Below are positions 14,119 through 60,223 of a stretch of DNA of 64,000 nt, one piece after another. A model generated the notes under the pieces. It did not search any database and was not told where the DNA came from. It saw only the letters and a list, made by a program, of their open reading frames with translations. The stretch comes from Lysobacter niastensis (GTDB lineage Bacteria; Pseudomonadota; Gammaproteobacteria; Xanthomonadales; Xanthomonadaceae). How positions within the stretch are numbered: position 1 is the first letter of the stretch; the number at the start of each line of letters is the position of its first letter. Location of the stretch: assembly GCF_015453285.1 (NCBI RefSeq), contig NZ_JADLZT010000005.1:62001-126000 (forward strand), given 5' to 3'. The translations under genes were made by a program, and so were the position numbers.

Positions 14119-14159
14119 CCGCGCCGGAAAGCGCGACGCGCGCGGGCGCAGCGGCGCGT

Positions 14160-17077: not shown

Positions 17078-17203
17078 CTGGAGACCCTGGTTCGTTGAAG
17101 GCGACTTGCAACGCAACGCTCATCAATCCTGTACGGGAAACAGCGCGTTTCGGGGACAAAATGCGCGTAATGGTGCGGTCGGAATCGTATCCAGGGCGCC
17201 GTC

Positions 17204-18121
17204 ATGTGGCCGTGTTTTGCCGTTCGATTGCGTTCTATTGCTTCGGACAACGCGCAACGATCGGGGAATCCGGTGTCACGACTTGGTTGCATTTCTGAAC
17301 AAAAGCCGAAGCCGTCCATTGATGCGCGTATCCACCACACCTTCATCGAAGCGTGGGAGGCGCGTGACGCGGGCACGCTCGAATCCCCGACAATTCTCGT
17401 TGCCTTGGCTCGGACGCTGGCATGGCGGCCATGGCTGCCGCAGGCGGAGCGGATGCTGGATGCGGCCGATCTCGCCAGGGTGCGCCGCCGGCGGGCCAGT
17501 CGTGATCGCGAACAACTGACGTTGGCATACGCATTGCATAGGGCGATGCTCGGCGCGGTGCTTGGAATGCCGCCCGAAGGAGTGCCGCTGTACCGCGACG
17601 CGAAAGGGTGTCCCCGACTGGAGGGCGGTATTGCCGCGACCAGCCTGAGCCACACCGATGGCGCAATCGCCATCGCGGTGACCCGCGCTTCGACCGTGGG
17701 CATCGACATCGAACCGGCGGAACGCGCGGGCGTCATGAGCGAGATCGCCGGTCGCCTGTGCCATCCACGCGAACTCCACGCAGCCAATGCCACGCCCGAA
17801 CCCCGGCGAGGTGCCGCTTGGCTTGCCTTGTGGGTTCGCAAGGAAGCCCTGTTGAAAGCGGCCGGAACGGGATTCGAGATCGAACCCGACGCTTTCGAGG
17901 CGCCGGACCAGACCGTGGTCGAACTGCCGGGCGCCGGTGGACTCGCCGTCGGCATGCTCGACGCCGGACACGGCTGGAGCGCCGCCGTCGCAGGGATGCC
18001 CGGCGCGGCGATCGAGTATGGCTGGACCGGACCGCACGGCCCGCTGCGTTATCAGAAGTTGGGACTGGCCGCAGGACGCCCCGTGGAGGCGGCCGCCGGA
18101 ACTTCGGAGTGGAAAGCGTGA
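17204..18121 (+). CDS. Sfp-type 4'-phosphopantetheinyl transferase
   Basis: Transfers the phosphopantetheine arm of coenzyme A to the Ser of carrier domains. 305 residues from the ATG at 17204; a GTG at 17276 would remove 24 residues of little family similarity. Diagnostic motifs are VGIDIEPAER (Asp168, Glu170) and WVRKEALLKAAGTG (Lys213, Glu214). The length fits the Sfp group rather than AcpS. Its likely substrates are the two carrier domains of the PKS/NRPS protein at 21263-28516 and the two of the NRPS at 28513-35004. The stop codon overlaps the GTG start of the sugar transferase by four bases, so translation of the two is coupled. Confidence 0.93.
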   Translation: MWPCFAVRLRSIASDNAQRSGNPVSRLGCISEQKPKPSIDARIHHTFIEAWEARDAGTLESPTILVALARTLAWRPWLPQAERMLDAADLARVRRRRASRDREQLTLAYALHRAMLGAVLGMPPEGVPLYRDAKGCPRLEGGIAATSLSHTDGAIAIAVTRASTVGIDIEPAERAGVMSEIAGRLCHPRELHAANATPEPRRGAAWLALWVRKEALLKAAGTGFEIEPDAFEAPDQTVVELPGAGGLAVGMLDAGHGWSAAVAGMPGAAIEYGWTGPHGPLRYQKLGLAAGRPVEAAAGTSEWKA

Positions 18122-19512
18122 AGGCTGCGCTGACGAGCCGGAAAAGCCGGGTCATCCGCCTGCTCTGGCTGGCGGAGCTGGTACTGCTGGTGCTTGCCGT
18201 CATGCTGGCGGCCTGGGTGCGCTTCCTCAAGGACCCGGAGGGGTTCGCCGTCTTCATCAGCGACGCGCCGCTACGTGCAGTGGTCGTGGCTAGCTTCATC
18301 ACGGTCGCGATGCTGGCCTTCGGCCTGTACCAGGTCCACGTCAGGTTGAACCGGCTCGATTTCGTGCTGCGCCTGCTCATGTCGTTCGCGTTCGGCGGCA
18401 TCGGCTTGCTGGTTCTCTATTACCTGGTGCCGGCTGCCTACATTGGCCGTGGAGTGCTGGCATTGGCGCTGTGCCTTGGGCTGCTGGGCGTGCTGCTGCT
18501 GCGCTGGCTGCTGCTTACGGTGCTGGGTGCGGATGCCTTCAAGCGGCGCGTGCTCGTGCTTGGGGCCGGTGGCAACGCCTGCCTGATCACCAAGCGCCTG
18601 CGCCGCAGGAACGATCGCCAGTCGTTCGTGCTCGTCGGTTTCATTCCGGCGCCGGAACAACCCGTGATGGTTCCGGAAGAGATGCTGCTGAGCACGAACT
18701 TCGGAGTGGCCGAGATCGCACGCTGGCTGCACGTCGACGAGATCGTCGTGGCCGTCGACGAACGTCGCGGCGGGTTGCCGATGGCCGAAATGCTGGCATG
18801 CGCGCAGGAAGGCGTGGTGGTGTCTGACCTGTCGACGTTCTTCGAGCGCGAAGCGGGCATGGTGAGGCTGGACGTGGCCGACCCGTCATCGCTGGTGTTC
18901 TCCGGAGGATTCGATCACTCCGTGCCCAGGCGCCTGAACAAGCGGTTGTTCGACCTGATGGCGGCCAGCGCGCTGCTGCTGGTCGCCTGGCCCTTCATGC
19001 TCCTGGTGGCATTGGCGATCTGGCACGAATCTGGCGAACCGATCTTCTATCGCCAGACCCGCGTGGGGTTGAATGGACGGCCGTTCGAGCTGGTCAAGTT
19101 CCGCAGCATGCGCGTGGATGCCGAGCAGGATGGCGTGGCGCGTTGGGCGCGCCGGGACGACGATCGCAGCACGCGGGTCGGGCGCTTCATCCGCACGACC
19201 CGGCTCGACGAACTGCCGCAGTTGTTCAACGTGCTTCGTGGCGAGATGAGCTTCGTCGGCCCGCGTCCGGAGCGGCCGCAATTCGTCGACATGCTCAGCC
19301 AGGAAATCCGCTACTACGACGTCAGGCACTGCATGAAGCCCGGCCTGACCGGATGGGCCCAACTGCGGTATCCCTATGGCGCCTCGGTGGAGGACGCTGC
19401 CGAGAAGCTGACCTTCGACCTGTTCTACGTGAAGAACCACGGCCTGCTGTTCGACCTGATGATCCTGTTGCAGACGGTCGAGGTGGTGCTGTTCCGGCGT
19501 GGAGCGCGCTGA
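18118..19512 (+). CDS. EPS-initiating polyprenyl-phosphate sugar phosphotransferase (TIGR03013-like)
   Basis: 464 residues from a GTG at 18118 with CGGAG eight bases upstream. It transfers a sugar-1-phosphate to undecaprenyl phosphate, the first step of repeat-unit assembly. The N-terminal half has four membrane segments (about residues 13-125) and a Rossmann-like CoA-binding domain (RRVLVLGAGGNACLI). The C-terminal bacterial sugar transferase domain has the family signatures KRLFDLMAASALLLV, FYRQTRVGLNGRPFELVKFRSM, TRLDELPQLFNVLRGEMSFVGPRPERP and KPGLTGWAQLRYPYG. The best family fit is the EPS/PEP-CTERM-associated type. Finding the initiating transferase coupled to a PPTase and 20 kb from the other glycosyltransferases is unusual. 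Confidence 0.93.
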   Translation: MKAALTSRKSRVIRLLWLAELVLLVLAVMLAAWVRFLKDPEGFAVFISDAPLRAVVVASFITVAMLAFGLYQVHVRLNRLDFVLRLLMSFAFGGIGLLVLYYLVPAAYIGRGVLALALCLGLLGVLLLRWLLLTVLGADAFKRRVLVLGAGGNACLITKRLRRRNDRQSFVLVGFIPAPEQPVMVPEEMLLSTNFGVAEIARWLHVDEIVVAVDERRGGLPMAEMLACAQEGVVVSDLSTFFEREAGMVRLDVADPSSLVFSGGFDHSVPRRLNKRLFDLMAASALLLVAWPFMLLVALAIWHESGEPIFYRQTRVGLNGRPFELVKFRSMRVDAEQDGVARWARRDDDRSTRVGRFIRTTRLDELPQLFNVLRGEMSFVGPRPERPQFVDMLSQEIRYYDVRHCMKPGLTGWAQLRYPYGASVEDAAEKLTFDLFYVKNHGLLFDLMILLQTVEVVLFRRGAR

Positions 19513-19531
19513 TCCGCGGAACACCGGTCGG

Positions 19532-20134
19532 TCAGTGGACGGCGATCGCTTCCCGCGGCTTGCTTGCTTCCGGCGTCTCCTTCGACGCTCCGGTAGGCCG
19601 GGTTTCTTCCGATGCCGGCACGCTTTCGGTGCGGCCCATGCTGTTGGCGGTGGAACCTTCGACAGTCGTCGAAACAGCGGTTTCGGGCACGATGCCGACC
19701 GGCAACCCGCTCACCTCGTCACCGACATTGGACGACAAACGATCCCAGGACGTCTGCAGGATCAGCAGCAGTGCGATCAGCAGGATCGCGATGATGAGCG
19801 TGCGGGCGAACGGCAGCTTTGGCTCGTCCTCGCGTGCAGGAGGCGACGCCGGTGGCATCCGGCGAGGTGTTGAACGAAGCGGCGCCGACGCAGCGCTGCG
19901 TACATGCAGCCCGCCGGGCAGGCGTCCGTACTGCCTGTGAAACTGGATTGCGGCGGTGTAGAGCGCGATCAGGTCGGGCAGCGCCAGGTTCTGTTCGACT
20001 TCCGGAGGATGTAGTCCAGCGCGGTCCGGATGCAGTTCGGCAACTCGCCGGCGGTAGGCACGCTTGAGCTCCACCAACGTGCAGCCGGGGCGCAGACCCA
20101 GTTCCGAGTAGAGCTGTGCGAAATCCTGCGTCAT
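19532..20134 (-). CDS. J-domain protein with one membrane helix
   Basis: 200 residues from the ATG at 20134 (MTQDFAQLYSELG). The N-terminal ~45 residues form a DnaJ-type J domain: YSELGLRPGCTLVELKRAYRRRVAELHPDR, with the essential HPD. A Pro/Arg-rich linker leads to a membrane helix (LIIAILLIALLLILQTSW, about residues 112-130) and a Ser/Thr/Glu-rich C-terminal part of about 70 residues, probably periplasmic. It would place an Hsp70 (DnaK) recruiting domain on the inner membrane. It is convergent with the sugar transferase (19 bases) and divergent from the JmjC gene. Its role in the locus is unknown; membrane J-domain proteins occur now and then in EPS clusters. Confidence 0.8.
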   Translation of the reverse strand: MTQDFAQLYSELGLRPGCTLVELKRAYRRRVAELHPDRAGLHPPEVEQNLALPDLIALYTAAIQFHRQYGRLPGGLHVRSAASAPLRSTPRRMPPASPPAREDEPKLPFARTLIIAILLIALLLILQTSWDRLSSNVGDEVSGLPVGIVPETAVSTTVEGSTANSMGRTESVPASEETRPTGASKETPEASKPREAIAVH

Positions 20135-20297
20135 CACATCCGCGGATGGAGGGCCCTGTTGGGCATAGCGTAGCGCGCCGCAGCGCCTGTGTACGCATTT
20201 TGCTTGGTATGCCCGGATTGGCCGCTGGTCCCGGGTCGGTACGTTCCTATCTAAGCCCTAAATGGCGCATCCCACAGCGCAAGAGGGAGTTTAGAGG

Positions 20298-21260
20298 ATG
20301 GCCCTTACAGTTCCGAAGCCGGTGGCGCTCGCGAAGGATGAGCACCAGCGGCTGGTGCCGCAGATCGAGTTCGACCCGGCGGCGTTCGACCCCTGGCGCA
20401 TACAGCCCGTGCGCCATCTCCTGAGCGACCATCCACTGCTTCAGCTCGAGGCGCTGACGGCGTTGGGTGCACGACTGGAAGCGGCGGGGCGCATCCGTAC
20501 GCACGCCAACGATGCGACCGCCGGAACGCCTTTCAACAACGCGCCGGATCTGCATCCGAATACGCGCTCGGCCGTGGACACCTTGAGTTCGCTGCGCGAA
20601 GCCAAGGCGTGGACGTCGCTGCTCAATGTCCAGACCGATTCCGTCTACCGCGAACTGGTCGGCATGGTGCTCGACAGCGTCCAGCCGCTGGTCGAGCAGC
20701 GCGACCCCGGCATGTGCCATCGCGCGGGGTGGATATTCGTTTCCTCGCCGCGCACGGTCACGCCATTCCATTTTGACAAGGAACACAACTTCATCCTGCA
20801 GATCCACGGCCGCAAGCGCGTGTACGTCTGGGATCACCGTGACACCGTCGTCGCCAGCGAGCTGGCGCGCGATCGCTTCCACCAGCGCCACGACCGCGAC
20901 CAGCTGCAGTGGAAGGAATCGTTCCGCGAGCGTGCGCAGGTGTTCGACCTGCTGCCGGGGCAGGGCGCCTACATGCCGTCGACCAGTCCGCACATGGTCG
21001 AGAACGGGGACGATCCATCGATCACGATCAGCTTCACGTACTACACCGATTCAACGCGGCGCGACGCAATGCTGCACAAGACCCATGCGGTGTTGCGCGA
21101 TCTCGGCGTGACACTCCCCGAGGTCGGGCGCTGGCCGCTGCTCGACGGTGCGACGGCGGTTGGCGTGCAGAGCGCGTTGGCGCTGCGCGCATTGGCCGCG
21201 CGCCTGACCGGTCGAGCCGGCGCGCCCGGGTACGCGCGTTTCGCGCAGGTGGGCATGTAG
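20298..21260 (+). CDS. JmjC/cupin-type Fe(II)/2-oxoglutarate oxygenase
   Basis: 320 residues with an AGAGGGAG ribosome-binding site upstream. The cupin core carries the facial triad His158-X-Asp160 (TPFHFDKEHNF) and His232 (TSPHMVENGD). A basic residue in LQIHGRKRVYVW is a likely 2-oxoglutarate ligand. It resembles the FIH/JmjC-like hydroxylases (cupin_8), which hydroxylate amino acid side chains on proteins or carrier-bound substrates. The gene ends two bases before the PKS/NRPS start and must share its transcript, so beta-hydroxylation of a carrier-bound amino acid or of the product is the favoured inference. No signal peptide is present. Confidence 0.87.
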   Translation: MALTVPKPVALAKDEHQRLVPQIEFDPAAFDPWRIQPVRHLLSDHPLLQLEALTALGARLEAAGRIRTHANDATAGTPFNNAPDLHPNTRSAVDTLSSLREAKAWTSLLNVQTDSVYRELVGMVLDSVQPLVEQRDPGMCHRAGWIFVSSPRTVTPFHFDKEHNFILQIHGRKRVYVWDHRDTVVASELARDRFHQRHDRDQLQWKESFRERAQVFDLLPGQGAYMPSTSPHMVENGDDPSITISFTYYTDSTRRDAMLHKTHAVLRDLGVTLPEVGRWPLLDGATAVGVQSALALRALAARLTGRAGAPGYARFAQVGM

Positions 21261-21262
21261 GG

Positions 21263-24200
21263 ATGGCCATGCACGCACCGAACCAGGAAGAAAGGCTTTC
21301 ATTGCTGGACGTGCTGCCCCAGCGTGCCGGCGATGCCGGGTGCGCGGCCATGCGCTTCACGCTCGATCCGGACCTCGCTGACATTGATCAGGAGGCGTTG
21401 ACGGCGGCGCTCGCCGTGGTCGAATCGCGCCTGACCGGCCAGGACGACGTCGTCGCGACGAAGATCGGCGCGGGCATCGTGCAGGTCGACGCCCGCGTTC
21501 CCCAGCGTGGACCCTGCGCGGATTGGAGTGCCCATCTTGCCTCGGCGATGCGTGCCGGTACGAAACCCCTGCGGCAGGTGGCGTGGGCCACTTGCAGTGG
21601 CGAGCCGGACACCGCGTCGGCGAATTCGGCCTGGCGCGTGGTCGACGGAAGCACAGTCGAGGTGACCTATCGCGAGCCGCTGGGTTCCGAGGCCATGGAA
21701 CTGGTATGGCAGTGCGTGCAGCGGGCGCTGCACTGGCTTGCGCAGCCGGCCGCGACCTTCGAAGGCCTGGACCTGATGAGCGAGGACGAGCGTTCGCGGG
21801 TGATGGGCGAATGGAACGACACCTCGGTCGCGAAGAGCGGAAGTGCGACCGTCCACGGCCGTTTCGCCGAGATCCGCGACCGGCAGCCGGATGCGCCCGC
21901 GGCCATCGACGACGTTTCGACGCTGAGCTATGCCGAACTCGACCGCCGTGCGGACATCCTGGCGCGACGCCTGCATGCGGCCGGCGTCCGGCCGGGCGGC
22001 GTCGTCGCCGTCGCCGCGCAACGCTCGGTGTCGGCCGTCGTCGCGGTGCTGGGCATCCTGAAGGCGGGCGCGGCGTACCTGCCGCTGGATGCGCATCATC
22101 CCTGCGAACGCCTGAAGTTCATGGTCGACGACGCAGGTGCCAGCGTGGTGCTGGTCGACCTGGATGGCGACGAGCTCACGCTGCCGTCGGGTACGCACGC
22201 GCTGGTCATCGATGACGGCTGGAGCGACCACGACTGGGCGGCCACCGACGACATCGTCAGCACCGGCGATTCGCTCGCCTACGTGATGTACACGTCGGGA
22301 TCGACCGGAACACCCAAGGGGGTGGAGATCCGTCATCGTTCCATCCTGCGCCTGGTCTGCGGCGTCGCTTACATCGAGCTGGGTTCGAGCACGCGGATGT
22401 TGCATGCGGCCCCGCTGGGGTTCGATGCATCGACGCTTGAAATCTGGGGCGCGCTGCTCAATGGCGGTTGCGTGGTCGTGCACGGGGAAGCGGTTCCGAC
22501 TGGCGAGGGGCTCGCCTCGACGATCTCGCGCCATGGCGTGACCACGGCCTGGTTGACGGCGGCGCTGTTCAACACCGTAGTCGACGAGAATCCGCAGCAC
22601 CTGGCCGGGCTGGACGAGCTGTTCACCGGGGGCGAGGCGCTGTCGGTGGAGCACGTGCGCCGCATGCGGCTGGAGGCGCCCGCCACGCGCCTGCGCAACG
22701 GCTACGGCCCCACGGAATGCACCACGTTCACCTGCACCCACGCGATCGATGACGTTCCGGACGAGGACAGCACTTCGATTCCGATCGGGCGTCCAATTGC
22801 GGACACGCAGGTCTACATCCTCAATGCCCGCCGGGAGCCGGTACCCGCCGGCGTGATCGGCGAGCTGTACGTGGGCGGGGAGGGTCTGGCCCGGGGCTAC
22901 CTCAACCGTCCGGAGCTGACCGCCGAACGCTTCGTCGCCAATCCCTTCGGTGAAGCGGGCGACCGGCTGTATCGCACCGGCGACCAGGTGCGTTGGCGTG
23001 ACGACGGCACCATCGAGTTCGTCGGCCGCGCCGATACGCAGGTCAAGATCCGCGGTTTCCGCATCGAGCTGGGCGAGATCGAAGCCACGCTCGCGCGTCA
23101 CTCCGCGATCCAGTCGTGCGCGGTGCTCGCGCGCGCCGATCAACCCGGCGACAAGCGCCTGGTCGCCTATTATGTCGCCCGTCGCGAGCCGCCCTCGGCG
23201 ACCGCGTTGCGGTCGTATCTCGCCTCACGTCTGCCTGATTTCATGGTGCCGGTGCGATACATCCGGCTTGGCGCTTTGCCCGTCACCGCCAACGGCAAGC
23301 TCGATCGCCGTGCGCTGCCGGCACCGGACCGGAGCCGTCCCGAACTGGCCGCCGCGTTCGAACCCGCGGTCAACGACGCCGAACATCGGATCTGCGAGGC
23401 CTTCGCGTCGCTGCTGGACGTCGAGCGCGTCGGGCGCAACGACAACTTCTTCGAACTGGGCGGCAGCTCGCTGGTCGGGTTGCGCCTGCTCGAACAACTG
23501 CGCCACCTGTTCCCGGTGCATGCCGCGGGCATCGCCGTGACCGTCCTGTTCCGTTGCCCGACGCCGGCGATGCTGGCGTTGGAGCTGGGCACGCGTGCCG
23601 CCACCGCGAAGCAGGAGCCGCGTGAGCCGGTCTTTGCCAGCGCAGACAGCGTGCACGAGGCGATCGCGATCGTGGCGATGGCCGGCCGTTTCCCGGGGGC
23701 CGGTGACATCGAAGCCTTCTGGAACAACCTGTGCGAAGGCAGGGACTCGATCACCGTGTTCGCCGCGGACCAGCTCGATCCGTCCATCGGCTGGGCCGAG
23801 CGCAGCGATCCGTCGTATGTGCCCGCGCGCGGCGTGATCGAGGGCGTGGATCAGTTCGATGCGGCGTTCTTCGGCATCAGTCCGAATGAAGCCGAATTGA
23901 TGGATCCGCAGCAGCGCATCTTCCTGGAGCTGTGCTGGGAATGCCTGGAGCGTGGCGGGCACGTGCCCGACGAAGGAACGTCGCGGATCGGCGTGTTCGC
24001 CGGCATGTACAACGCCACCTATTTCCAGAGGCACCTGGCGGGACGCGGTGACCTGATCGACCGCATCGGCGCATTCCAGGTGATGCTCGACAACGAGAAG
24101 GACTACATCGCCACCCGAACCGCCCACAAGCTCAACCTGACGGGGCCTGCGATCAGCGTCCACACGGCCTGCTCGACTTCTCTGGTGGCGATCTGCCAGG

Positions 24201-27200
24201 CGATGGACAGCCTGCGTGCGGGCCGCTGCGGGATGACCCTGGCCGGAGGCGCGTCGGTAACGTGCCCACCGCACAGCGGCTACCGCTACCAGGAAGGCGC
24301 GATGCTGTCGCCGGACGGGCATACGCGCACGTTCGACGCGCGCGCGCAGGGCACCGTGTTCAGCGACGGCGCGGCCGTGGTGCTGCTCAAGCGCTGGTCC
24401 GACGCAGTCCGCGACGGCAATCCGGTCTATGCGGTGATCCTCGGCGGCGCGGTCAACAACGACGGCGGTTACAAGGCCAGCTTCACCGCGCCGAGCAGCG
24501 AGGGGCAGGCGGCGGTGATCGCCGCCGCGCACGATGACGCCCGCGTGGCGCCGCGCAGCATCGGCTACGTGGAAGCGCACGGCACGGCGACGCCGCTGGG
24601 TGACCCGATCGAGATCGAAGGCCTGACCAAGGCGTTCCATCGCAGCACGCAGGACACCGGCTTCTGCCGCATCGGTTCGGTCAAGACCAACGTCGGCCAT
24701 ACCGTCATCGCAGCGGGAGCCGCGGGTGTCATCAAGACCGCTCTGGCGCTGACCGAGGAGCGCATCCCGGGCAACGTGCATTTCCATGCGCCCAATCCCT
24801 CGATCGCGCTAGATGGATCGCCGTTCGTGGTCAACGCGTCGCTGAGTGCGTGGCCGCGCGGCGAACAGCCGCGCCGCGCAGGTGTCAGCTCGTTCGGCGT
24901 TGGCGGCACCAATGCCCACGTCGTGCTCGAAGAAGCGCCGCTGCGACCCGAGTCGCAACCGGCCGAAGGTCCGCAACTGCTGGTGCTTTCGGCGCGCACG
25001 CCCACTGCACTGGCGCGCGCCGCGGCCGACCTCGCCGGGCACCTCACCAGCCACCCGGATGCCAACCTGGCCGACGTTGCCTGGACACTGGCCGTAGGAC
25101 GCAAGGCCTTCGCGCATCGTCTGGCGATCGCCGCCGACAGTGTGGAGGCGGCCGCGACCGCGCTCGATTCGCCCGAGACCAATGCCACCGCGATGCGCAG
25201 CCGTCCTGCGCGCGGGCGCGACGCCGTGCTTCTGTTCCCGGGGCAGGGCGCCACTTATCCCGGCATCGGGCGCGGACTTTACGACAGCGAGCCGGCATTC
25301 CGTGCTGCCGTTGACGAGTGCGCCGGCATGCTGGCGGACGAACTCGGCTTCGATCTGCGCGAGCGGATGTTCTCGGTCGACGAGCAGGCACTGCTGCAGA
25401 CATCGATCATGCAGCCGGCCACGTTCGCGATCGAGTACGCGCTGGCACGTCTGTGGATGAGCCATGGCGTGACGCCAGCAGCAATGATCGGCCACAGTGT
25501 GGGTGAGTTCGTCGCGGCCACGCTGGCCGGCGTCTTCGCGTTGCCCGATGCGTTGCGCCTGGTGGCGCGACGGGGCGCGTTGATGCAGGCGCAGCCGGCG
25601 GGCGGCATGCTGTCGGTACGCCTGGCGCTGGACGACCTGCTGCCGAGGATTCCCGAGGCGTTGTCGCTGGCGGCCGAGAACGCGCCCGGCAGTTGCGTCG
25701 TCGCCGGTCCCTTGGAAGCATTGGCGGCGTTCCAGGCGCAACTGGAAGGCGAGGGCGTCGCGTGCCGCGCACTGCGTACCTCGCACGCTTTCCATTCGGC
25801 CATGATGGATCCGGTCGTCGCGCCATTCCGCGCGGAAGTGGCCGCGATCACGCGATCGGCGCCCTCCATTCCGATCATCTCGACCGCCACCGGCGATTGG
25901 CTCGACGCGAACATGGCGGTGTCGCCGGACTACTGGGCAAGGCACCTTCGCGAGCCGGTGCGCTTCGCGGCGGCGTTGGGACGCCTGCTTGAGAACACCG
26001 GCCACGTGCTGCTCGAAACGGGCCCACGAGCAACCTTGTCGACGCTGGCGCGGCAGCATCCGTTGGCGCAGAAGCAGCAGACCGTCGCCATCGCCACGCT
26101 GGCCGACGAGCCCGATCGCGAACGCTCCGCGTTCTTCGCGGCTGCGGGTGCGTTGTGGTGCAGCGGCGTCGCGCCCGACCTGGAAAGCTTCGACCGGCGT
26201 TCGCACCGTCGCCGCCTGCTGTTGCCCACCTATCCCTTCGAACGCCAGCGCTACTGGGTCGATGCCGCTCCGGCCATGCCGGCGGTGGCTGCCGATATCG
26301 CGCCGGCTCCGTCCCCCGTGGCCGTCGACGAGACGGTTCTGGAGAACACCATGCCGCAATCCGCCATTCCCGCCGTGTCCGTCGATCGTCGTCCGCGCCT
26401 GGTCGCGCAACTGAAGGACGTGTTCGAGGATGTGGCCGGATTCGACATGGCCGACGCCGAGCCCGAGGCGAACTTCATGGAGCTCGGGCTCGACAGCCTG
26501 ATGCTGACCCAGGTCGCGCTGCAGCTGGAGAAGACGTTCGGCGTCAAAGTCAGTTTCCGGCAGCTGATGGGTGACTGCGCCAGCCTCGAACGGCTCGCGG
26601 CGATGATCGACGCGGCGCTGCCACCCGATGCGATGCCCGCACCGTCGCCCGCAGTGGCACCGCCCGCAATGCCGGCTGCCGCTGCTGGACAGGCGGTTGC
26701 CGCGATCCCGCCGATCCCGGCGATGCCTGCGGCGGCCGGAACAAGCGATTTCGCCCGCCAGGTCATCGCGCAGCAGATGCAGTTGATGGCGCAGCAACTT
26801 GCGCTGCTGTCGGGCAGTCCGGCAATGGGCGGCGCGGCGCCGCCGATGGCGCCTGCCGCATCCGTCGGACCGCCGCCTCCGGTGGCGCAGGCGCCAGTCG
26901 TCGCTGCTGCGCCGCCGGCCGCTGGCGAAGGCGGAACCGACGAAGAGGCCGCATTGGCCCACACCCGCTACGACGTGAAGAAGGCCTTCGGCGCGATCGC
27001 GCGTATCGACAGCCACTCGATGATCGAACTCAGCGACCGGCAGCGCGCCAGGCTCGACGACTTCATGGCCCGCTACGTGGCGCGCACGCGCAAGTCGAAG
27101 GAGTACACGCAGCAGCATCGCGACCACATGGCCGATCCGCGTGTCGTCAACGGCTTCCGCCCGCTGACCAAGGAGATCGTTTACCAGATCGTGATCGAGC

Positions 27201-28512
27201 GCTCCAAGGGCTCGCACATGGTCGACCTCGATGGCAACGACTACGTCGACGCGCTCAATGGCTTCGGCATGAGCCTGTTCGGATGGCAGCCGGACTTCGT
27301 GCTCGATGCGATCCGGCAGCAGCTCGAGCTGGGTTACGAGATCGGTCCGCAACATCCGTTGGCGGGCGAGGTGGCCAGGCTGGTCTGCGACGTCACCGGG
27401 CACGACCGCGCCGCCTTGTGCAATACCGGCTCGGAAGCGGTGCTCGGCGCGCTGCGCGTCGCCCGGACCGTCACGGGCCGCGAGACCGTGGTGCTGTTCA
27501 CCGGCTCCTACCACGGCATCATCGACGAGATGATCGTGCGCGGCACCAAGAAGCTGCGCGCGGTGCCAGCCGCACCTGGCATCCTGCGCAACACCGCCGA
27601 GCACGTGCTGGTGCTGGATTACGGCACGCCGGAATCGATGCAGATCATCCGCGAGCGCGCCAGCGAGATTGCCGCGGTGCTGGTGGAGCCGGTGCAGAGC
27701 CGGCGCCCGGACTTCCAGCCGCGCGAGTTCCTGAAGGAACTCCGCCAGGTCACCTCCGATGCCGGCGCTCTCTTGATCTTCGATGAAGTGGTGACCGGTT
27801 TCCGCGCGCATCCGGCCGGTGCACAGGGGCTGTTCGGCATCGCTGCCGACCTGGCAACGTATGGAAAGGTGGTCGGCGGCGGCTATCCGATCGGCGTCAT
27901 CGCCGGAAAACGCGATTATATGGATGCGCTGGACGGCGGCCATTGGCAGTTCGGCGACGACTCCGTGCCGACCGTGGGCGTCACGTACTTCGCGGGCACC
28001 TTCGTGCGGCACCCGCTGGCGCTCGCAGCCGCGCACGCCGTGCTGACCCACATCAAGGCGCACGGCGAGTCGCTGCAGCAATCGCTCAACGATCGCGCCA
28101 AGGCGATGGTTACGGAGCTCAACGGGTTCTGTTCCGAGCGCGGAGCGCCGATCGAAGTCAGGAGCTTCTCCTCGGTATGGAAGACGTTCTTCCTCGAGGA
28201 CCACCCGCTGCAGGACCTGCTGTTCGCGATGATGCGCAGCCGCGGCGTGCACATCCTCGACAACTTCCCCTGTTTCCTCACCACGGCGCACACCGAGGCC
28301 GACATCCAGCGCATCGTCACCGCCTTCAAGGAGTCGGTGGTCGAGTTGCAGGAGGCCGAGTTCCTGCCCCGGCACAGCGCGACGCCGAACACCGTGATGG
28401 ATTCCACCCGGCCGACGGTGGCCGGTGCGCGGCTCGGGCGCGATCCCGACGGGCGTCCCGCCTGGTTCGTACCGAATCCCGATCAGCCCGGCAAATACCT
28501 GAAGGTGGGGGG

Positions 28513-28516
<4 letters not shown>
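21263..28516 (+). CDS. Hybrid NRPS-PKS: A-T-KS-AT-T-aminotransferase
   Basis: 2417 residues from the ATG at 21263; AGGTGGG lies 8 bases upstream. Domains in order: residues 1-195 a C-domain-like remnant without HHxxxDG; adenylation ~195-685 (YTSGSTGTPKG at 343, GYGPTE at 480); carrier T1 with Ser736; ketosynthase ~798-1225 with Cys970 (HTACSTSL) and the His motifs EAHGTATPLGDP and NVGHT; acyltransferase ~1325-1640 with Ser1412 (GHSVGEF) and HAFH at 1508, the malonyl-CoA pattern; carrier T2 with Ser1745; a Pro/Ala linker; and a class III PLP aminotransferase ~1965-2350 with Lys2202 (ATYGKVVGGG). The specificity code read by eye is DALWFGGTFK, closest to Val codes. There are no KR, DH or ER domains. 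The expected action is loading an aliphatic amino acid, adding malonyl, and converting the beta-ketone to an amine, as in iturin/mycosubtilin synthases. The stop overlaps the next start (ATGA). Confidence 0.95.
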
Positions 28517-35004
<6,488 letters not shown>

Positions 35005-35065
35005 TCCGCAGGCACCACCACCGGTGCGTGCATGGAACCCGCAGGCCAACCTGCGGGCGGAAGGA

Positions 35066-35875
35066 ATGACCGTGGGCGTCTGGGAACCGTTCTGGCTCGG
35101 TGCTGGCGAGCAGCGCCTCTACGCCGCCCTGCACCGGGCGAATCTGCCATCGCCTCGTCTCGGCCTGGTGCTGGCGCCGCCTCTCTTGCATGAGCAGCCG
35201 CGCAGCCGTCGCCTGTTGACCGAGCTGGCGACGGCGCTGGCGCAGGAAGGCGTGCCGTGCGTGCGCTTCGATTACTTCGGAACAGGCGATTCCGACGGCA
35301 GCGGCGAGCAGCTCGACTTCGCCTCGATGCGCCGGGACCTGCAGTTCGCGGCGGACAGCCTCATCGCACGCGGCGGCGTCGAGCGGATTGGCGTGCTGGC
35401 CGTGCGCGGCGCGACCTTGCCGGTCTTCTCGTGGCTTCGCGGCGGCGGCGCGGCGAACCTGCTGGTGCTGTGGGAGCCCGTGGTCGACGGTGAGAGCTGG
35501 CTCGCCGAACTGGAGACCCGCGATGCGATGGAGCGCCGGTCGCCGTTGCGCTATCCGACCGCAGCCGGCGCGCCTCCGAATGGCGTCTCCAGCGATGATC
35601 TGCAGTTGATGGGGTATCCGGTGTCCACGCAGTTGCGTCGCGACATTGCCCAGGCGCGTGTCATCGACGACGGCGTGCGCGCCTTCCCGCGCTGCTGGAG
35701 CGTGCTCCGCGAGGATGCCGACATGCTGCCGGTCACGTGCGAGCGCGTGTTCCGGCTGCCGACCGATACTCCGTTGATTGGCGGCGCGGTCAGCATGGAT
35801 GCCTCGGTGTTCGTCACGCCGGGGCTGCAGCGCGTGGTCGATGAACTGGCTCAAGCCTTGCGAAAGGAGCGCTGA
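35066..35875 (+). CDS. Alpha/beta-hydrolase-fold protein, degenerate nucleophile (exosortase-associated hydrolase 2-like)
   Basis: 269 residues from the ATG at 35066 (MTVGVWEPFWLG); a GTG at 35024 would extend it. The fold is recognisable from LGLVLAPPLLHEQPRSRRL, ALAQEGVPCVRFDYFGTGDS and LVLWEPVVDG. These resemble the 'hydrolase 2, exosortase A system-associated' family (TIGR03101). The nucleophile elbow reads GVLAVRGATL with Arg114 where Ser is expected, and no C-terminal catalytic His is evident, so it is probably not a hydrolase by the usual mechanism. It follows the NRPS after 61 bases and precedes its sister by 4 bases. A binding or partner role for the second hydrolase is inferred. Confidence 0.8.
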   Translation: MTVGVWEPFWLGAGEQRLYAALHRANLPSPRLGLVLAPPLLHEQPRSRRLLTELATALAQEGVPCVRFDYFGTGDSDGSGEQLDFASMRRDLQFAADSLIARGGVERIGVLAVRGATLPVFSWLRGGGAANLLVLWEPVVDGESWLAELETRDAMERRSPLRYPTAAGAPPNGVSSDDLQLMGYPVSTQLRRDIAQARVIDDGVRAFPRCWSVLREDADMLPVTCERVFRLPTDTPLIGGAVSMDASVFVTPGLQRVVDELAQALRKER

Positions 35876-35879
35876 GGCG

Positions 35880-36698
35880 ATGGACACCATGGTGCAGTTC
35901 GGACCGGAGCAGCGCCTGGTCGGCGTGCTGACCGGTAATCCAGGGGCGTCGGGCATGCCGCTGGTGGTGTTGCCCAGTGCGGGCCTGTTGCCCCGGGCCG
36001 GTCCCTTCCGCCTGCATGTCGAGCTGTCCCGCCGACTCGCACGCCAGGGCGTAAGCAGCTTCCGTTTCGACGTGCCGGGTGTCGGCGAGGCGCCGCGCCT
36101 GAAAGGTTGCGGCAGCCGCGAAGCGACACTGGCCGCGCTCGAGCATCTCGCCAGCATGCACGGTGCGCGGCAGTTCATCGTCGGCGGCGTTTGCAGCGCG
36201 GCCGACGTGGCGTGGAGCGTGGCACTGGCGGATTCACGCGTGTGCGGCGTGCTGATGCTCGATGGATTGAGCTACACCGGTCCCTGGTTCCGGCTCGCCC
36301 TCGCGGCCGGCGTGCTGAGGCGGCCGATGCGCGAGTGGCCGAGCGTGATGAAGCGTTTGCTCGGGCGCATGCAGGAAAGCTCGAGCGAGCGCGCGCCAGT
36401 GATCGAGGATTACCGCGACTGGCCCGAGCGGCCCCAGGCGCAGAGTGAGTTCGCCAGGCTGGTCGCGCGCGACGTTCGTTCACTGTGGGTCTACACGGGC
36501 GGCTACACCGCACGCTTCCTGCATCCACGCCAGTTCGCCTGGAGCTTTGGCGGCGCCGTGCGCGACCGTCGCGTGGCGATGCACTACTGGCCCGACTGCG
36601 ACCACACGTTCTTTGCCCGCGTGCACCGCGACCGGTTGATGGATACCGTCGAAGGCTGGCTCGTCAGTAACTTCCGGTCGCAGGGCGCGCCGGCATGA
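35880..36698 (+). CDS. Alpha/beta hydrolase with Cys nucleophile, candidate release enzyme (exosortase-associated hydrolase 1-like)
   Basis: 272 residues from the ATG at 35880; AAAGGAGC lies 10 bases upstream. Typical parts are PLVVLPSAGLLPRAGPFRLHV, LARQGVSSFRFDVPGVGEA, the elbow VGGVCSAADVA with Cys105, and the C-terminal His242 in DCDHTFF. A Cys elbow of this form is characteristic of 'hydrolase 1, exosortase A system-associated' (TIGR03100). Its position directly after an NRPS without a thioesterase makes it the best candidate for off-loading or transferring the peptide. Its start lies 4 bases after the previous stop and its end overlaps the next gene by 4 bases. Confidence 0.82.
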   Translation: MDTMVQFGPEQRLVGVLTGNPGASGMPLVVLPSAGLLPRAGPFRLHVELSRRLARQGVSSFRFDVPGVGEAPRLKGCGSREATLAALEHLASMHGARQFIVGGVCSAADVAWSVALADSRVCGVLMLDGLSYTGPWFRLALAAGVLRRPMREWPSVMKRLLGRMQESSSERAPVIEDYRDWPERPQAQSEFARLVARDVRSLWVYTGGYTARFLHPRQFAWSFGGAVRDRRVAMHYWPDCDHTFFARVHRDRLMDTVEGWLVSNFRSQGAPA

Positions 36699-38374
36699 GC
36701 GCCGAACCGGCGGTACCCGACCTCACGTCGTCCACCGGGGAGCGCGTGAGCGCGCATACGCCACTCTATGCAACCGCGCATGCACGACGCTTGCGTGTGG
36801 CGTGCGTGATGCCCGCGCGCGCACCTGCCTGGCTCGCGCACCTGCAGGAGTTGGCGTCGGAACACGATTGGCTGGAATGGACGTCCATTCCGGTGGCGGG
36901 GCCGGAAGCGTCGGCGGCAGCGCGGATGCCGCGCGACCTGGCCGCGTTCCTGCGTCACGAGCGTTCGCGGCTGCATGGCGTCGGCGCCTTCGCGGCCACG
37001 ACACTGCCCGTGTCAGTGCGCTCGGGAAATCCGGACGCGGTGGCGACGCGGGTGGCGGCGTTGCGGCCGGACCTGATCCTGTTGCGTGGCCCTGATTCGT
37101 GGGCTGCGACGCTCGCACCGCTTGCGGCATACGGCTGCTGGCTCATCGACGATACGCTCGGCGATGAGGGAGTCGCGGCGCAAGCGTTGCTTGCGCCGTT
37201 GCTTCGCGGCGACGACGCCACCGCGGTCGAACTTGAACTCGTGTCGCAGGACTCTCCGAGTGCCCGGCTCGTTGCCAGTTGGGGCTCCACCTGCAAGGCG
37301 TCGGTCACGCAGCAATGCGAACTCGCATTCCGCAAGATGCCAGCGCTGGTGCTGCGTTCACTGCGCCGGCTGCATCAGGGCGATCATCCGCAAGGAACGT
37401 CGCATGCCATCGCAACCTTGCGGCTGAAGGCTCGTCCGGTGCCGCCCCTGCCGGGTTTGCGCGCGATGGTGCGCACGTTCGCGGAACGCGTCGCGATCCG
37501 CTGGCGGCAGAAACACCAACCGTACGAGGATCCGTGGTTCGTGCTGATCCGACAGGATGGCGAGCCGCTGCGGCCCGAGCGCCCGGATGTGCCGGGCTTT
37601 GCCAGGCTGGTGGCTTCGAGTGCGCTCGGGGTGCAGGTCTGGGCCGATCCCTGCTGCGTCGAGGACGGTGATCGCCGGTTTGTTTTCGTCGAGGAATGGA
37701 CACCCGGGGAAAGCAAGGCCCACATCGCATGCCTGGAGGTTCCGCAGCAAGGACCGGTGCGTCGCCTGGGCGTCGTGCTGGACCGCCCCTACCACCTGTC
37801 GTTTCCGCAGGTGTTTTCCTGGGAGCGGCAGTGGTACATGACGGTGGAATCGGGACAGGCGCGCTGCGCCACGCTGTATCGCGCGCAGGGCTTCCCGATG
37901 ATGTGGCATCCGGTAAAGGACCTGATCAGCGGGCGCCAGTGCGTCGATCCGGTGTTGCATCACCACGAGGGCCGCTGGTACCTGTTCGCCAACATCGCCG
38001 AAAGCGGCGGCAGTACCTGGGACGAGCTTTTCCTGTTCGTCGCCGACTCGCTCACCGGTCCGTACGTACCACACCCGGCCAACCCCATCGTTGCCGACGT
38101 GCGCCGTGCCCGGCCGGCGGGACGCCTGTTCGTGCGGGATGGTCGCCTGATCCGTCCGGCGCAGGACTGCGCGGCCAGTTACGGTGCCGCGATCGTGTTC
38201 AACGACGTGTTGGAATTGAGCCCGACCCATTATTCAGAACAACCGCTCGGACGGCTGGACGCGTCGTTCGCGAAGGGCCTGGACGGATGCCATACCTACA
38301 GCGAGAGCGGTGGCCTGGAAGTCCTGGACGCACGCGGCGTCCCGGAACGCGTGACGCACAGGCAGGTGGTCTGA
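36695..38374 (+). CDS. Fused protein with C-terminal GINT1/GH43-like beta-propeller, possible glycan-modifying enzyme
   Basis: 559 residues. About residues 30-215 resemble a formyltransferase/NAD-independent Rossmann-like segment (LRVACVMPARAPAWLAHL, VAALRPDLILLRG). Residues ~270-545 form a five-bladed propeller of the GH43/glucosamine inositolphosphorylceramide transferase type (WFVLIRQ, WADPCCVEDGDRRFVFVEEW, LSFPQVFSWERQWYMTVES, CVDPVLHHHEGRWYLFANI). Propeller acids at DPCCVED and E of VES may be functional. In plants this domain is found in a sugar-transferring enzyme, and in bacteria it occurs in glycan loci. It is the last gene of the plus-strand series (ATGA overlap with the hydrolase). 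A role in attaching or processing a sugar-linked group is inferred; the activity is not established. Confidence 0.7.
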   Translation: MSAEPAVPDLTSSTGERVSAHTPLYATAHARRLRVACVMPARAPAWLAHLQELASEHDWLEWTSIPVAGPEASAAARMPRDLAAFLRHERSRLHGVGAFAATTLPVSVRSGNPDAVATRVAALRPDLILLRGPDSWAATLAPLAAYGCWLIDDTLGDEGVAAQALLAPLLRGDDATAVELELVSQDSPSARLVASWGSTCKASVTQQCELAFRKMPALVLRSLRRLHQGDHPQGTSHAIATLRLKARPVPPLPGLRAMVRTFAERVAIRWRQKHQPYEDPWFVLIRQDGEPLRPERPDVPGFARLVASSALGVQVWADPCCVEDGDRRFVFVEEWTPGESKAHIACLEVPQQGPVRRLGVVLDRPYHLSFPQVFSWERQWYMTVESGQARCATLYRAQGFPMMWHPVKDLISGRQCVDPVLHHHEGRWYLFANIAESGGSTWDELFLFVADSLTGPYVPHPANPIVADVRRARPAGRLFVRDGRLIRPAQDCAASYGAAIVFNDVLELSPTHYSEQPLGRLDASFAKGLDGCHTYSESGGLEVLDARGVPERVTHRQVV

Positions 38375-38437: not shown

Positions 38438-40759
38438 TCAGTAGACCGAGAAGGTCGAGTTGGCGGTGGCCGTCTTGCTGCTGTAGGTAGCGGCAGAGGT
38501 CAGCTTGTAGGAGCCCTTCGAGCTCGAGCCGGTACCGGTCACGAAGCTCCAGCGGGCATAGCCATCAGCACCGGTGGTCACGGTCTTGACGATCGTGTCC
38601 ACGCCATTCGGCTTGAGCGCGGTGAACTTCACGGTGGCGCCGCTGACAGCCTTGCCGTCGAGGAGCACACGCGAGCTCATGGTCACGGTCGAACCGGCGG
38701 CGTACGACGTCTTGTCGGTGCCCACGGTGTCGGTCAGGCCGGTCGGAGCCGGAGCGGTCGCCGAGCCGACGGTGAACGTCGAGTTGGCAGTGGCGCTCGC
38801 AGAGCCGCTGGTGGCGACGGCCGACAGCTGGTACGTGCCGATCGAGGTCGAACCGGTACCGGTGACGAAGTTCCAGCGGGCATAGCCGTCGGCGCCAGTG
38901 GTCACGGTCTTGACGATCTTGTCGATACCGTTCGGCTTGACCGCGGTGAACTTGACGCTGGCACCGCTGACGGCCTGGCCGTTGAGCAGCACGCGCGAGC
39001 TCATGTAGACGGTCGCACCGGCCGCATAGGCAGTCTTGTCAGTGGCAACGGTGTCGCTCAGGCCCGTGGCCGGCGGCGGGGTCGGGTCGGTCGTCGGCGG
39101 CAGAGTCGGATCGGTCGGCGGGTTGGTCGGCGGAGTGGTCGGCGGGGTGGTGCCACCGGCCTGGACCTCATAGGCACCGATGTCGGCCTGGGCACCCGAC
39201 GGACGCGGAGCCAGCACGAAGTCGCTGTTCACGCCGCTGATGACCGGAACCTTGTCGATCACCGGGCTGCCGGCGAGCGGCTGCGCGTCGAACGAGGCGA
39301 GGTTCGTGTTGGTCAGCTTCGGATCCTGACAGACGCTGCCGGACGGGCACTGGCTGTTCTTGACGTTGTAGAACAGGTTGCCGGCGTAGCTCACCGTGGC
39401 CGTGCTGTTGTAGACGATGTGACCGATCGACTGCACGTTGGTGCCGGCGACGGCCGCCAGGTAGTACGGCTTGCCGATGATGGCGTTGTTCTGGATGTTC
39501 AGCTTCGCGGAAGCCGAACCGCCGGTGTTCATGATCGCACCCTGGCCTTCGCTGATGATCGTGTTGTGACGCACGTTCACCACGTTGCCGTCCACCATCG
39601 AGATCGACAGCGCGTTGCCGTTGGCGCGGCACTGGTCGCCGGCCTGCATGAAGCCCTTGCCGCTGTAGTAGCTGCAGTAGCCGGTCAGGACCGAGTTCTC
39701 GATCGTCGCGTTGCCGTTGGTCTTGAGCTGGTTGCCGGCATTGGCGTACGAGTGCAGGCGACGCACGGTCAGCGTGGTGCCGGCCTTGCCGTCGAGGTAC
39801 AGCAGGTCGACGCCGTCGGACGTGTTGTGGTGGACGTCGGAGTCCTCGATCAGCCACTGGCCGCCGGTGTAGTAGGTGCCCAGACCGTCGCCGTAACCGC
39901 CGGCCTTCTGGCCCCAGCAGTTGACCTTCTCGCCGGTCGACGGGTTCTCACCGCAACCGTTGTAGGCGATTTCGACCTGGCGCAGGATCATCTGGCCGCT
40001 GTTGCTGCTCGACGATTCGCCGACGTTGCCGTCCCAGCCGGCCCAGCCGTTGGCGTTGATCTTGACGCGCTCCATCGTCCAGTTGGCGAGACCGCCGGCG
40101 TTGACGCCGTGCAGGCCCAGGCCATGGATGTTGAGGTCGTGCAGATAGACGTTGCTGGAGGCGCTGGCAGACAGGCCGATCGAGGCCCAGTTGCCGGTGG
40201 TGGCGCACTTGGCCGCAGCGTTGCTGTGGCCCTTGATGCACTGGTCCTTGTCGGTGATTTCGAGGTTACCGATCTCGACGTTGTTGCTGCCGTTGAGGTT
40301 CAGCACGCTCCAGGTGCCATTGGCGCCCCACAGCTTCGGTGCCTTGGAGCCGGTACCGAGGATGCGGGTCTTGGCAGTGGCGCTCGGGCCGCTGGGGATC
40401 TTGCTGAGCGAGCACGAGCTCTTGTCGCCGGTCGCACAGCCGCCGCCCATGCCGGGCGCGCCGTAGCCGATCATGTATTCACCGGAACCGATGTACAGCG
40501 TGTCGCCGCCGGCGATACGCGGCGTGCCGCTGTTCGGCAGCGCGAAATAAGGATGCTTCCACGCGCAGTTCTGACCGGTGCCGCTGCCGGAATAGGGAGC
40601 GTCAGCCTTGCCGTTACATTGCGTGGCGTCACCGCCGTCGGTACGGACGTAGAAGTTGGTGGCGGCCTGGGCGGAGCCCATGGCGGCGAAACCGATCGGG
40701 GCGAGGAGCAGGGAGAAAGCAGACTGCGTCAGAGCGCGACGCGAAATAGCGAGAGACAT
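38438..40759 (-). CDS. Secreted parallel beta-helix protein with two Ig-like repeats
   Basis: 773 residues from the ATG at 40759 (AGGAG about 10 bases upstream). The signal peptide ends at GSAQA. The first ~530 residues form a right-handed parallel beta-helix of the pectate-lyase/PL6-like class: NFYVRTDGGD, PRIAGGDTLYIGSGEY, NNVEIGNLEI, HHNTSDGVDLLYLDG, TIENSVLTGY, VRHNTIIS. A Thr/Pro linker and two ~108-residue Ig-like repeats follow. Cys-rich loops suggest disulfides. It is strongly paralogous to the protein at 43697-45331. A polysaccharide lyase or EPS-binding surface protein is inferred; no catalytic residues can be assigned with confidence. Confidence 0.85.
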   Translation of the reverse strand: MSLAISRRALTQSAFSLLLAPIGFAAMGSAQAATNFYVRTDGGDATQCNGKADAPYSGSGTGQNCAWKHPYFALPNSGTPRIAGGDTLYIGSGEYMIGYGAPGMGGGCATGDKSSCSLSKIPSGPSATAKTRILGTGSKAPKLWGANGTWSVLNLNGSNNVEIGNLEITDKDQCIKGHSNAAAKCATTGNWASIGLSASASSNVYLHDLNIHGLGLHGVNAGGLANWTMERVKINANGWAGWDGNVGESSSSNSGQMILRQVEIAYNGCGENPSTGEKVNCWGQKAGGYGDGLGTYYTGGQWLIEDSDVHHNTSDGVDLLYLDGKAGTTLTVRRLHSYANAGNQLKTNGNATIENSVLTGYCSYYSGKGFMQAGDQCRANGNALSISMVDGNVVNVRHNTIISEGQGAIMNTGGSASAKLNIQNNAIIGKPYYLAAVAGTNVQSIGHIVYNSTATVSYAGNLFYNVKNSQCPSGSVCQDPKLTNTNLASFDAQPLAGSPVIDKVPVISGVNSDFVLAPRPSGAQADIGAYEVQAGGTTPPTTPPTNPPTDPTLPPTTDPTPPPATGLSDTVATDKTAYAAGATVYMSSRVLLNGQAVSGASVKFTAVKPNGIDKIVKTVTTGADGYARWNFVTGTGSTSIGTYQLSAVATSGSASATANSTFTVGSATAPAPTGLTDTVGTDKTSYAAGSTVTMSSRVLLDGKAVSGATVKFTALKPNGVDTIVKTVTTGADGYARWSFVTGTGSSSKGSYKLTSAATYSSKTATANSTFSVY
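38444..39070 (-). repeat. Two tandem ~324-bp repeats encoding Ig-like domains
   Basis: Two direct copies offset by 324 bases (for example GTCGAGTTGGC at 38454 and 38778, GGTACCGGT at 38531 and 38855). Each encodes a domain with the core SSRVLL-G-AVSGA-VKFTA-KPNG and VKTVTTGADGYARW. High DNA identity points to a recent in-frame duplication. Confidence 0.85.
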
Positions 40760-58915: not shown

Positions 58916-58933
58916 GTCGGGCTCCTCGTTCCT

Positions 58934-60223
<1,290 letters not shown>

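What the first reader, a model, noticed from the sequence alone, without database searches (positions are those of the whole stretch)
17204..38374. A complete PKS/NRPS assembly line sits inside an exopolysaccharide locus
PPTase, oxygenase, A-T-KS-AT-T-AMT protein, C-A-T-C-A-T protein, two hydrolases and a propeller protein are on the plus strand, most with overlapping or near-touching ends. The same stretch includes the EPS-initiating sugar transferase, and EPS synthesis/export genes follow directly. I know of no described system with this combination. The simplest reading is a peptide-polyketide group made for, or together with, the polysaccharide.
Basis: partly seen in the sequence, partly recalled or inferred. 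Interest (0 to 1): 0.88.

Follow-up and report, generated by a model that had tools for sequence, protein, structure and literature searches.

The report
Swappable peptide-polyketide assembly line in slime locus
A bacterium carries a small peptide-polyketide factory inside its slime (exopolysaccharide) gene cluster; many relatives in the order Xanthomonadales carry such a factory at that cluster but with different versions of it, which suggests that the slime sugar may be decorated with assembly-line peptides.

Summary
In detail: 17204-38374 encodes a PPTase, a TIGR03013-type EPS sugar transferase, a cupin/JmjC oxygenase, an A-T-KS-AT-T-AMT protein, a C-A-T-C-A-T protein without TE, two alpha/beta hydrolases and a propeller protein, inside a Wzx/Wzy-type EPS locus. 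Corrections: minus-strand genes separate the sugar transferase from the oxygenase and the propeller gene from the flippase.

The linkage recurs. Of 149 family genomes, 43 have the KS-AT region; 38 of these have this sugar transferase: adjacent in 33, on different contigs in four, 690 kb apart in one. Of 29 long-enough named Xanthomonadales loci found by the PKS alone, 27 are EPS-linked. One relative has the same EPS locus at the same site without the cassette; within one genus the line was exchanged while EpsB and Wzx stayed 92% and 89% identical. The line behaves like a serotype-style block.

Against an EPS role: outside Xanthomonadales such lines often lie away from detectable EPS genes, and the hydrolases accompany lines, not EPS. 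Predicted product: Val-derived 3,4-diamino acid-Ser-Gly. Covalent attachment to EPS is my best reading (0.45); it is not shown. No exosortase was found.

The parts
17204..18121 (+). 4'-phosphopantetheinyl transferase (start may be 17453)
   Evidence: PF01648 51.7 bits; in 24 of 32 family stretches with a line, 0 of 16 without
18109..19512 (+). EPS-initiating polyprenyl glycosylphosphotransferase, TIGR03013 type
   Evidence: 543.6 bits, cut-off 393.35
19532..20137 (-). J-domain protein between the two plus-strand runs
   Evidence: PF00226 28.4 bits, cut-off 27.8; same place and strand in many relatives
20298..21260 (+). cupin/JmjC-type oxygenase
   Evidence: PF13621, PF08007
21263..28516 (+). 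A-T-KS-AT-T-AMT hybrid protein; A code DALWFGGTF (Val-like, table recalled)
   Evidence: AMT best PDB match is mycosubtilin synthase subunit A, 6kfm, E 1.5e-120
28522..35004 (+). C-A-T-C-A-T NRPS without thioesterase; A codes Ser-like then Gly-like (table recalled)
35066..35875 (+). hyd2: alpha/beta-hydrolase-like, Arg at the nucleophile elbow
   Evidence: TIGR03101 57.8 bits, below cut-off 202.75; Arg in 45 of 45 aligned
35880..36698 (+). hyd1: alpha/beta hydrolase with GxCS elbow
   Evidence: TIGR03100 57.6 bits, below cut-off 168.45; Cys and His 43 of 43 aligned; fold
36695..38374 (+). protein with N-terminal alpha/beta domain and C-terminal propeller like GH117/GH43
   Evidence: PF24793 110.7 bits; model pLDDT 87.3, Foldseek
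38438..40681 (-). protein with MG2 domains and a choice-of-anchor Q domain; similar to the beta-helix protein at 43697
41377..42924 (+). Wzx-type flippase
   Evidence: PF01943
42943..43692 (+). DUF218 protein
   Evidence: PF02698
43697..45316 (-). right-handed beta-helix protein
   Evidence: PF13229
45334..46674 (-). Wzy-like polymerase
   Evidence: PF04932
46676..48484 (-). asparagine-synthase-type amidotransferase
   Evidence: TIGR01536 489 bits, cut-off 267.1; TIGR03108 below cut-off
48557..53388 (-). four glycosyltransferases
53495..54835 (-). EPS outer-membrane protein (TIGR03016)
   Evidence: 93.4 bits, cut-off 90.85
54860..55603 (-). tyrosine autokinase-like protein
   Evidence: TIGR03018 148.5 bits, below cut-off 230.65
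55600..57171 (-). Wzz chain-length determinant (TIGR03007)
   Evidence: 296.6 bits, cut-off 278.85
57182..57703 (-). Wza-type export protein (TIGR03027)
   Evidence: 201.5 bits, cut-off 180
57908..60223 (-). TviC-like and TviB-like sugar-nucleotide enzymes (below the equivalog cut-offs)

Best explanation
A variable, serotype-like block of an EPS locus. The PPTase activates the carrier domains. The first protein loads an amino acid (Val-like), extends it once with malonate and transaminates the beta-keto group, giving a 3,4-diamino acyl chain; the NRPS adds Ser and Gly; the cupin protein probably hydroxylates a carrier-bound residue. The finished (3,4-diamino-5-methylhexanoyl)-Ser-Gly thioester is taken from the last carrier by the hyd1/hyd2 pair (hyd1 with a Cys nucleophile, hyd2 a partner without one) and is transferred in the cytoplasm to a sugar of the lipid-linked EPS repeat (the propeller protein may bind the glycan) before Wzx flips it. 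Shown by sequence: domains, order, linkage, exchange. Predicted: residues and their order. Inferred: hydroxylation, the release step and covalent attachment to EPS.
For: Linkage: KS-AT in 43 of 149 family genomes; 38 of those 43 have the TIGR03013-type transferase, against 17 of the other 106; adjacent in 33 of 38 (32 by coordinates, G018). hyd1 in 38 of 149 genomes, all 38 with the transferase. Named loci found by the PKS alone: 27 of 29 long-enough Xanthomonadales loci EPS-linked. Same site without cassette: G079 has lexA, recA and alaS, then the transferase, J-domain ORF, wzx and the other EPS genes, and no PPTase, line, hyd1/hyd2 or propeller in the fetched 40 kb; no KS-AT or hyd1 hit in that genome. 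Exchange: in two genomes of one genus (G066, G015) EpsB is 92%, Wzx 89%, propeller 75% identical but PKS 47% and NRPS 41%. The first A domain varies while the last is Gly-like in 30 of 31 lines. No transporter among the window's cassette genes. A hyd2-like domain is fused in frame to the last T domain in four loci (G110, G039, L070, L010; the second and third near-identical), tying it to release. In a separate KS lineage tviB-tviC run straight into the PKS (G095, G109, G077, G033).
Against: No enzyme that joins the peptide to a sugar is identified. hyd1/hyd2 also accompany lines without detected EPS genes in Variovorax and Corallococcus and the unlinked line of G024, and they are absent from the 20 named Rhodanobacteraceae loci as fetched, so they are not an EPS-specific attachment system. 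Variovorax L034 has an RND pump beside the line, as a free product would need. The one Bacteroidota NRPS looked at (L039) ends in a region that reads as a thioesterase by its motif. EPS loci exist without the line. On the EpsB tree the line's presence changes 5-6 times, so EpsB type does not predict it.
Confidence: 0.45

Rival explanations
1. A free small peptide metabolite (enzyme inhibitor, antibiotic or signal) made by a self-contained cluster that is kept at the EPS locus because both are expressed in biofilms; the hydrolases release it and it is never joined to sugar.
For: Homologous lines with PPTase and hyd1/hyd2 but no EPS genes found within 10 kb in six Variovorax loci (L018, L034, L046, L055, L063, L065) and, without the PPTase, in Corallococcus L037; RND pump beside the Variovorax L034 line; unlinked line in G024; thioesterase-like end in L039.
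Against: Does not by itself explain linkage over two families, line exchange at a fixed EPS site, or the lack of an exporter among the window's cassette genes.
Confidence: 0.35
2. Plain hitchhiking: the site downstream of alaS is a hotspot that collects clusters; the line has no functional tie to EPS.
For: The hotspot is real: loci with a line, loci with a stand-alone A-domain-type ORF and one locus with neither follow alaS in relatives.
Against: The sugar transferase lies between the PPTase and the line; linkage survives different gene orders (Rhodanobacteraceae, G095-type) and occurs in a separate KS lineage.
Confidence: 0.13
3. The line makes a lipid-like primer or anchor on which the EPS is built (as proposed for rhizobial RkpA capsule synthesis; recalled).
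For: Position next to the EPS-initiating transferase.
Against: Predicted product is short and polar; a sugar transferase for initiation is present; the same EPS locus exists without the line (G079).
Confidence: 0.04

Closest known systems
Mycosubtilin/iturin synthetase first subunit (MycA)
   Same: Order activation-carrier-KS-AT-carrier-aminotransferase (MycA order recalled); AMT domain is the best PDB match (6kfm, E 1.5e-120)
   Different: Starts with an amino-acid A domain (TIGR01733 451.7 bits), not a fatty-acid ligase (recalled for MycA); only two NRPS modules follow; no thioesterase; sits in an EPS locus
XrtA/PEP-CTERM-type EPS loci (TIGR03013, TIGR03007, TIGR03016, TIGR03027)
   Same: These four models score above their curated cut-offs
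   Different: No exosortase in the genome (PF09721, 0 of 20 genomes searched, own one included); an NRPS/PKS is present
Exosortase A-associated hydrolases 1 and 2 (TIGR03100, TIGR03101)
   Same: Best NCBIfam hits of hyd1 and hyd2
   Different: 57.6 and 57.8 bits against cut-offs of 168.45 and 202.75, so not members
Ligase-type EPS loci at the same site (G125, locus L129)
   Same: lexA, recA and alaS upstream and the same kind of sugar transferase; ACP-like protein plus AMP ligase
   Different: No PKS/NRPS, PPTase or hyd1/hyd2 found in the fetched 40 kb
Orphan hybrid NRPS-PKS cluster reported by antiSMASH in Dyella jiangningensis FCAV SCS01 (PMC6082245; passages read)
   Same: Perhaps this line: L012 is another strain of that species
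   Different: The passages seen report low or no similarity to known clusters and do not mention EPS

Membership tests
Modular type I PKS/NRPS assembly line | A, C, T, KS, AT domains in collinear order | tested here: met
Modular type I PKS/NRPS assembly line | Release domain in the last module (common, not universal) | tested here: not met
   No TE match in the NRPS; two separate hydrolases follow
Iturin/mycosubtilin-type synthetase | Aminotransferase domain after KS-AT-T | tested here: met
Iturin/mycosubtilin-type synthetase | Fatty-acid activating first domain (recalled) | tested here: not met
   First domain scores as amino-acid adenylation, TIGR01733 451.7 bits, code DALWFGGTF
XrtA/PEP-CTERM EPS system | EPS genes of TIGR03013/03007/03016/03027 type | tested here: met
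XrtA/PEP-CTERM EPS system | Exosortase | tested here: not met
   PF09721 absent from own genome and 19 relatives
TIGR03100 / TIGR03101 hydrolases | Score above curated cut-off | tested here: not met
   57.6/168.45 and 57.8/202.75 bits
Wzx/Wzy-dependent EPS locus | Wzx, Wzy, Wzz, Wza and initiating transferase | tested here: met
Polysaccharide acyl-peptide decoration | Peptide covalently on the polysaccharide | not testable with these tools
   Needs NMR/MS of EPS

The most novel reading that the evidence does not exclude
A new class of glycan modification: NRPS/PKS-built beta-amino peptides are covalently added to EPS repeat units, and exchange of the assembly line at a fixed locus acts as serotype switching across Xanthomonadales.
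Probability: 0.4. Interest if true: 0.88.

Novelty: new variant of a known kind. Interest (0 to 1): 0.72.

Why it matters
If the product is on the EPS, assembly-line chemistry is a source of polysaccharide diversity and these orphan clusters should be sought in the matrix, not in culture extracts. If it is free, it is a widespread family of EPS-linked metabolites for which the searches made here listed no product. Either way the cassette-free locus of G079, the exchanged lines of G015 and G066 and the hyd2 fusions make the question directly testable.

Tried and rejected
Exosortase/PEP-CTERM sorting as the function: rejected, no exosortase found. Lipid primer: disfavoured by G079. Idea that ligase-type loci share hyd1/hyd2: not found with profiles built here, and of those genomes only G024 has a hyd1 hit. 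EPS linkage as a general trait of the line: rejected; in the KS-AT tree of 103 rows the label needs 15 changes, 12 forced by starred branches (shuffled mean 30.8), and outside Xanthomonadales it is patchy. My first count of two EPS loci with neither line nor ligase-type ORF was wrong for G103: hyd1 lies 20 kb away, outside the fetched DNA, so only G079 stands. EpsB type does not predict the line. Presence of PF02397 or PF02563 somewhere in a genome says nothing: 49 of 49 records have them; only nearness was used. Literature: nine answered searches; no title or abstract start in their listings describes an assembly line in an EPS locus; beyond the listings only passages of PMC6082245 and PMC11631085 were seen; most subscription journals are not held. 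Promoter scan of 16900-21300 found none, with 0.4 expected; Rfam found only the two tRNAs in 12600-42000.

'EPS-linked' means a tblastn match to window EPS proteins or at least three glycosyltransferase matches within the fetched DNA, a test that is weak for distant phyla (it missed L039); L070 is linked only by a weak TviB-like match, and L021 and L054 by glycosyltransferases, the last two with a PF02397 gene near by. Contig identity was inferred from coordinates. Eight of the 55 genomes with the transferase were not fetched (G034, G044, G093, G098, G120, G127, G128, G142). Six L rows that duplicate G loci (L009, L028, L035, L036, L057, L069) were dropped before the trees and the hyd alignments; the hyd alignments took only matches of at least 200 (hyd1) and 140 bits (hyd2). 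Names of recA, lexA, recX and alaS in the window are by eye; Stachelhaus meanings, HAFH for malonyl, the nucleophile-elbow logic, the RkpA proposal and MycA order and starter are recalled.

Full report
What is there. The window is part of a 4.03 Mb genome (G000:C11:62001-126000). A same-genus genome (G006) has a contig of the same length as that of Lysobacter soli KCTC 22011 (751141 bases), so the family is very probably Lysobacteraceae. The window carries lexA, recA and alaS (named by eye) and two tRNA genes, then an EPS locus. Its left part holds the cassette: PPTase, TIGR03013-type sugar transferase, minus-strand J-domain ORF, cupin oxygenase, A-T-KS-AT-T-AMT, C-A-T-C-A-T, hyd2, hyd1, propeller protein. 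Its right part holds Wzx, DUF218, two secreted-type proteins (one with a beta-helix match, one with MG2 domains), Wzy, an asparagine-synthase-type amidotransferase, four glycosyltransferases, an outer-membrane protein, a tyrosine kinase, Wzz, Wza, TviC/TviB-like enzymes and an epimerase. The condensation-domain model finds in the genome only the two C domains of this NRPS and one match below the cut-off.

Chemistry. The AMT domain is closest in the PDB to that of mycosubtilin synthase. The three A-domain codes are DALWFGGTF, DVWHMSLV (ninth letter D, read by eye) and DILQLGMVW, which by the recalled Stachelhaus table mean Val-like, Ser and Gly. The AT carries HAFH, malonyl-type by recall. This predicts a 3,4-diamino-5-methylhexanoyl-Ser-Gly thioester, perhaps hydroxylated. 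In 31 family lines with an NRPS A domain (the unlinked G024 line included), the last A code is DILQLG(M/V/L)(V/I)W in 30 and DMPQLGMVW in one (G148); the first A domain varies (Val-like, Thr, Pro, Ser and an unassigned DILIIGGIM type). Lines differ at the start and agree on Gly in the last A domain, though in lines of the C-A-T-C-T kind a further C domain follows it.

Release. The NRPS has no thioesterase match. hyd1 has an invariant Cys at the elbow and an invariant His (43 of 43 each; neighbouring Asp 41 of 43), and models as an alpha/beta hydrolase (pLDDT 89.3). hyd2 has Arg at that position in 45 of 45. In four loci (G110, G039, L070, L010) a hyd2-like domain lies in the same open frame as the last T domain; G039 and L070 are near-identical. 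In G003 a segment that reads as a thioesterase by motif lies between two T domains; other Lysobacter loci have the same T-gap-T layout. The propeller protein's C-terminal half resembles GH117/GH43-type propellers.

Linkage. In 149 family genomes the AMT region (E up to 1e-120) is in 30, the sugar transferase (1e-110) in 55, and all 30 are among the 55. The KS-AT region (1e-150) is in 43, of which 38 have the transferase: 32 within 20 kb by coordinates; G018 adjacent by its fetched contig; G067, G098, G103 and G142 on different contigs; G024 690 kb apart. G067 still has an NRPS, hyd2, hyd1 and propeller beside its transferase. G098, of the genus of G024, has line and hyd1 together on another contig and may be a second unlinked case. 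In genomes of about 3-5 Mb, 20 kb either side is about 1% by chance (my arithmetic). The other five (G099, G124, G137, G139, G145) match at 37-49% and have no such transferase.

States at one site. Of 47 fetched EPS loci (of 55), 31 carry a line and 16 do not; among the 48 stretches (these plus the unlinked line of G024) the PPTase is in 24 of 32 with a line and 0 of 16 without, hyd1 and hyd2 in 27 of 32 and 0 of 16. One of the 16 (G103) has hyd1 20 kb outside the fetched part and one (G024) has its line elsewhere. Fourteen of the 16 have a stand-alone A-domain-type ORF; checked for G125 only, it is an AMP ligase (TIGR03098 361.5 bits, below its cut-off) with an ACP-like protein. G079 has the same upstream genes and EPS genes with no cassette gene.

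Exchange. G066 and G015, of one genus, share EpsB 92%, Wzx 89%, propeller 75%, PPTase 73%, hyd1 67%, hyd2 53%, but PKS only 47% and NRPS 41%, over parts of their length; G015's line is split over several ORFs. G049 and G110, of one genus, differ by the AMT domain. On the EpsB tree of 69 rows, presence of the line needs 6 changes, 5 of them forced. This is the behaviour of a variable block in a capsule or O-antigen locus (analogy, recalled).

Beyond the family. In the KS-AT tree (103 rows, quick method) a supported clade of 54 rows holds the Xanthomonadales lines: 50 EPS-linked, 2 on short contigs, 2 not. Of its 31 rows found by the PKS alone, 27 are linked, 2 short, 2 not (L017 begins at a contig end; L073). 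A Bac_transf gene lies within about 15 kb of the PKS in 17 of 17 records searched (16 named Rhodanobacteraceae and Pseudoxanthomonas GM95), and a Poly_export gene within about 50 kb in 13 of 17 (contigs matched by coordinates). Sister clade (mainly Burkholderiales, 19 rows): 6 linked, 11 not, 2 short. Bacteroidota (17 rows): 2 linked, 14 not, 1 short, but one of the 14, Mucilaginibacter flavus L039, proved to have a flippase-type protein and five glycosyltransferase matches around its line. Corallococcus (2) and Leptolyngbya (1): not linked. A separate KS lineage (G109, G095, G077, G033) is also EPS-linked, with tviB-tviC running into the PKS, so the association probably arose more than once; these four loci were, however, fetched around the sugar transferase.

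Reading. The line is a self-contained small-peptide unit that in Xanthomonadales has become a swappable part of EPS loci. Covalent decoration is the reading that best explains this; a free, biofilm-linked metabolite is close behind. Nothing computed here shows where the product goes.

Noticed in passing
window 19532-20137 (-): A J-domain protein sits next to the EPS sugar transferase, on the opposite strand, in the window, in G079 and in many relatives; its role is unknown.
   Followed up: partly
window 7494-20137; L129; G079 (L117, L118): The site downstream of lexA-recA-alaS is an EPS hotspot in several relatives: loci with a line, loci of the ACP/AMP-ligase type and one locus with neither occupy it.
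   Followed up: yes
L129:12330-17215: Ligase-type EPS locus with an ACP-like protein (best NCBIfam hit: ornithine-lipid ACP, below cut-off), an AMP ligase, an NAD synthase-like protein and a polysaccharide deacetylase.
   Followed up: partly
window 38438-40681 and 43697-45316 (-): Two related proteins in the EPS locus, one with a right-handed beta-helix match, one with MG2 domains; homologues occur in EPS loci of relatives, possibly EPS lyases or matrix proteins.
   Followed up: no
G066 (L154) and L053, downstream part: A further NRPS module (C-A-T, in G066 with about 290 extra C-terminal residues) lies beyond the line in some EPS loci.
   Followed up: no
L039:79-9765: Mucilaginibacter flavus has a polysaccharide flippase-type protein and several glycosyltransferases around its homologous line.
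   Followed up: partly
L034:24902-29280: RND pump and membrane-fusion genes beside the Variovorax line.
   Followed up: partly
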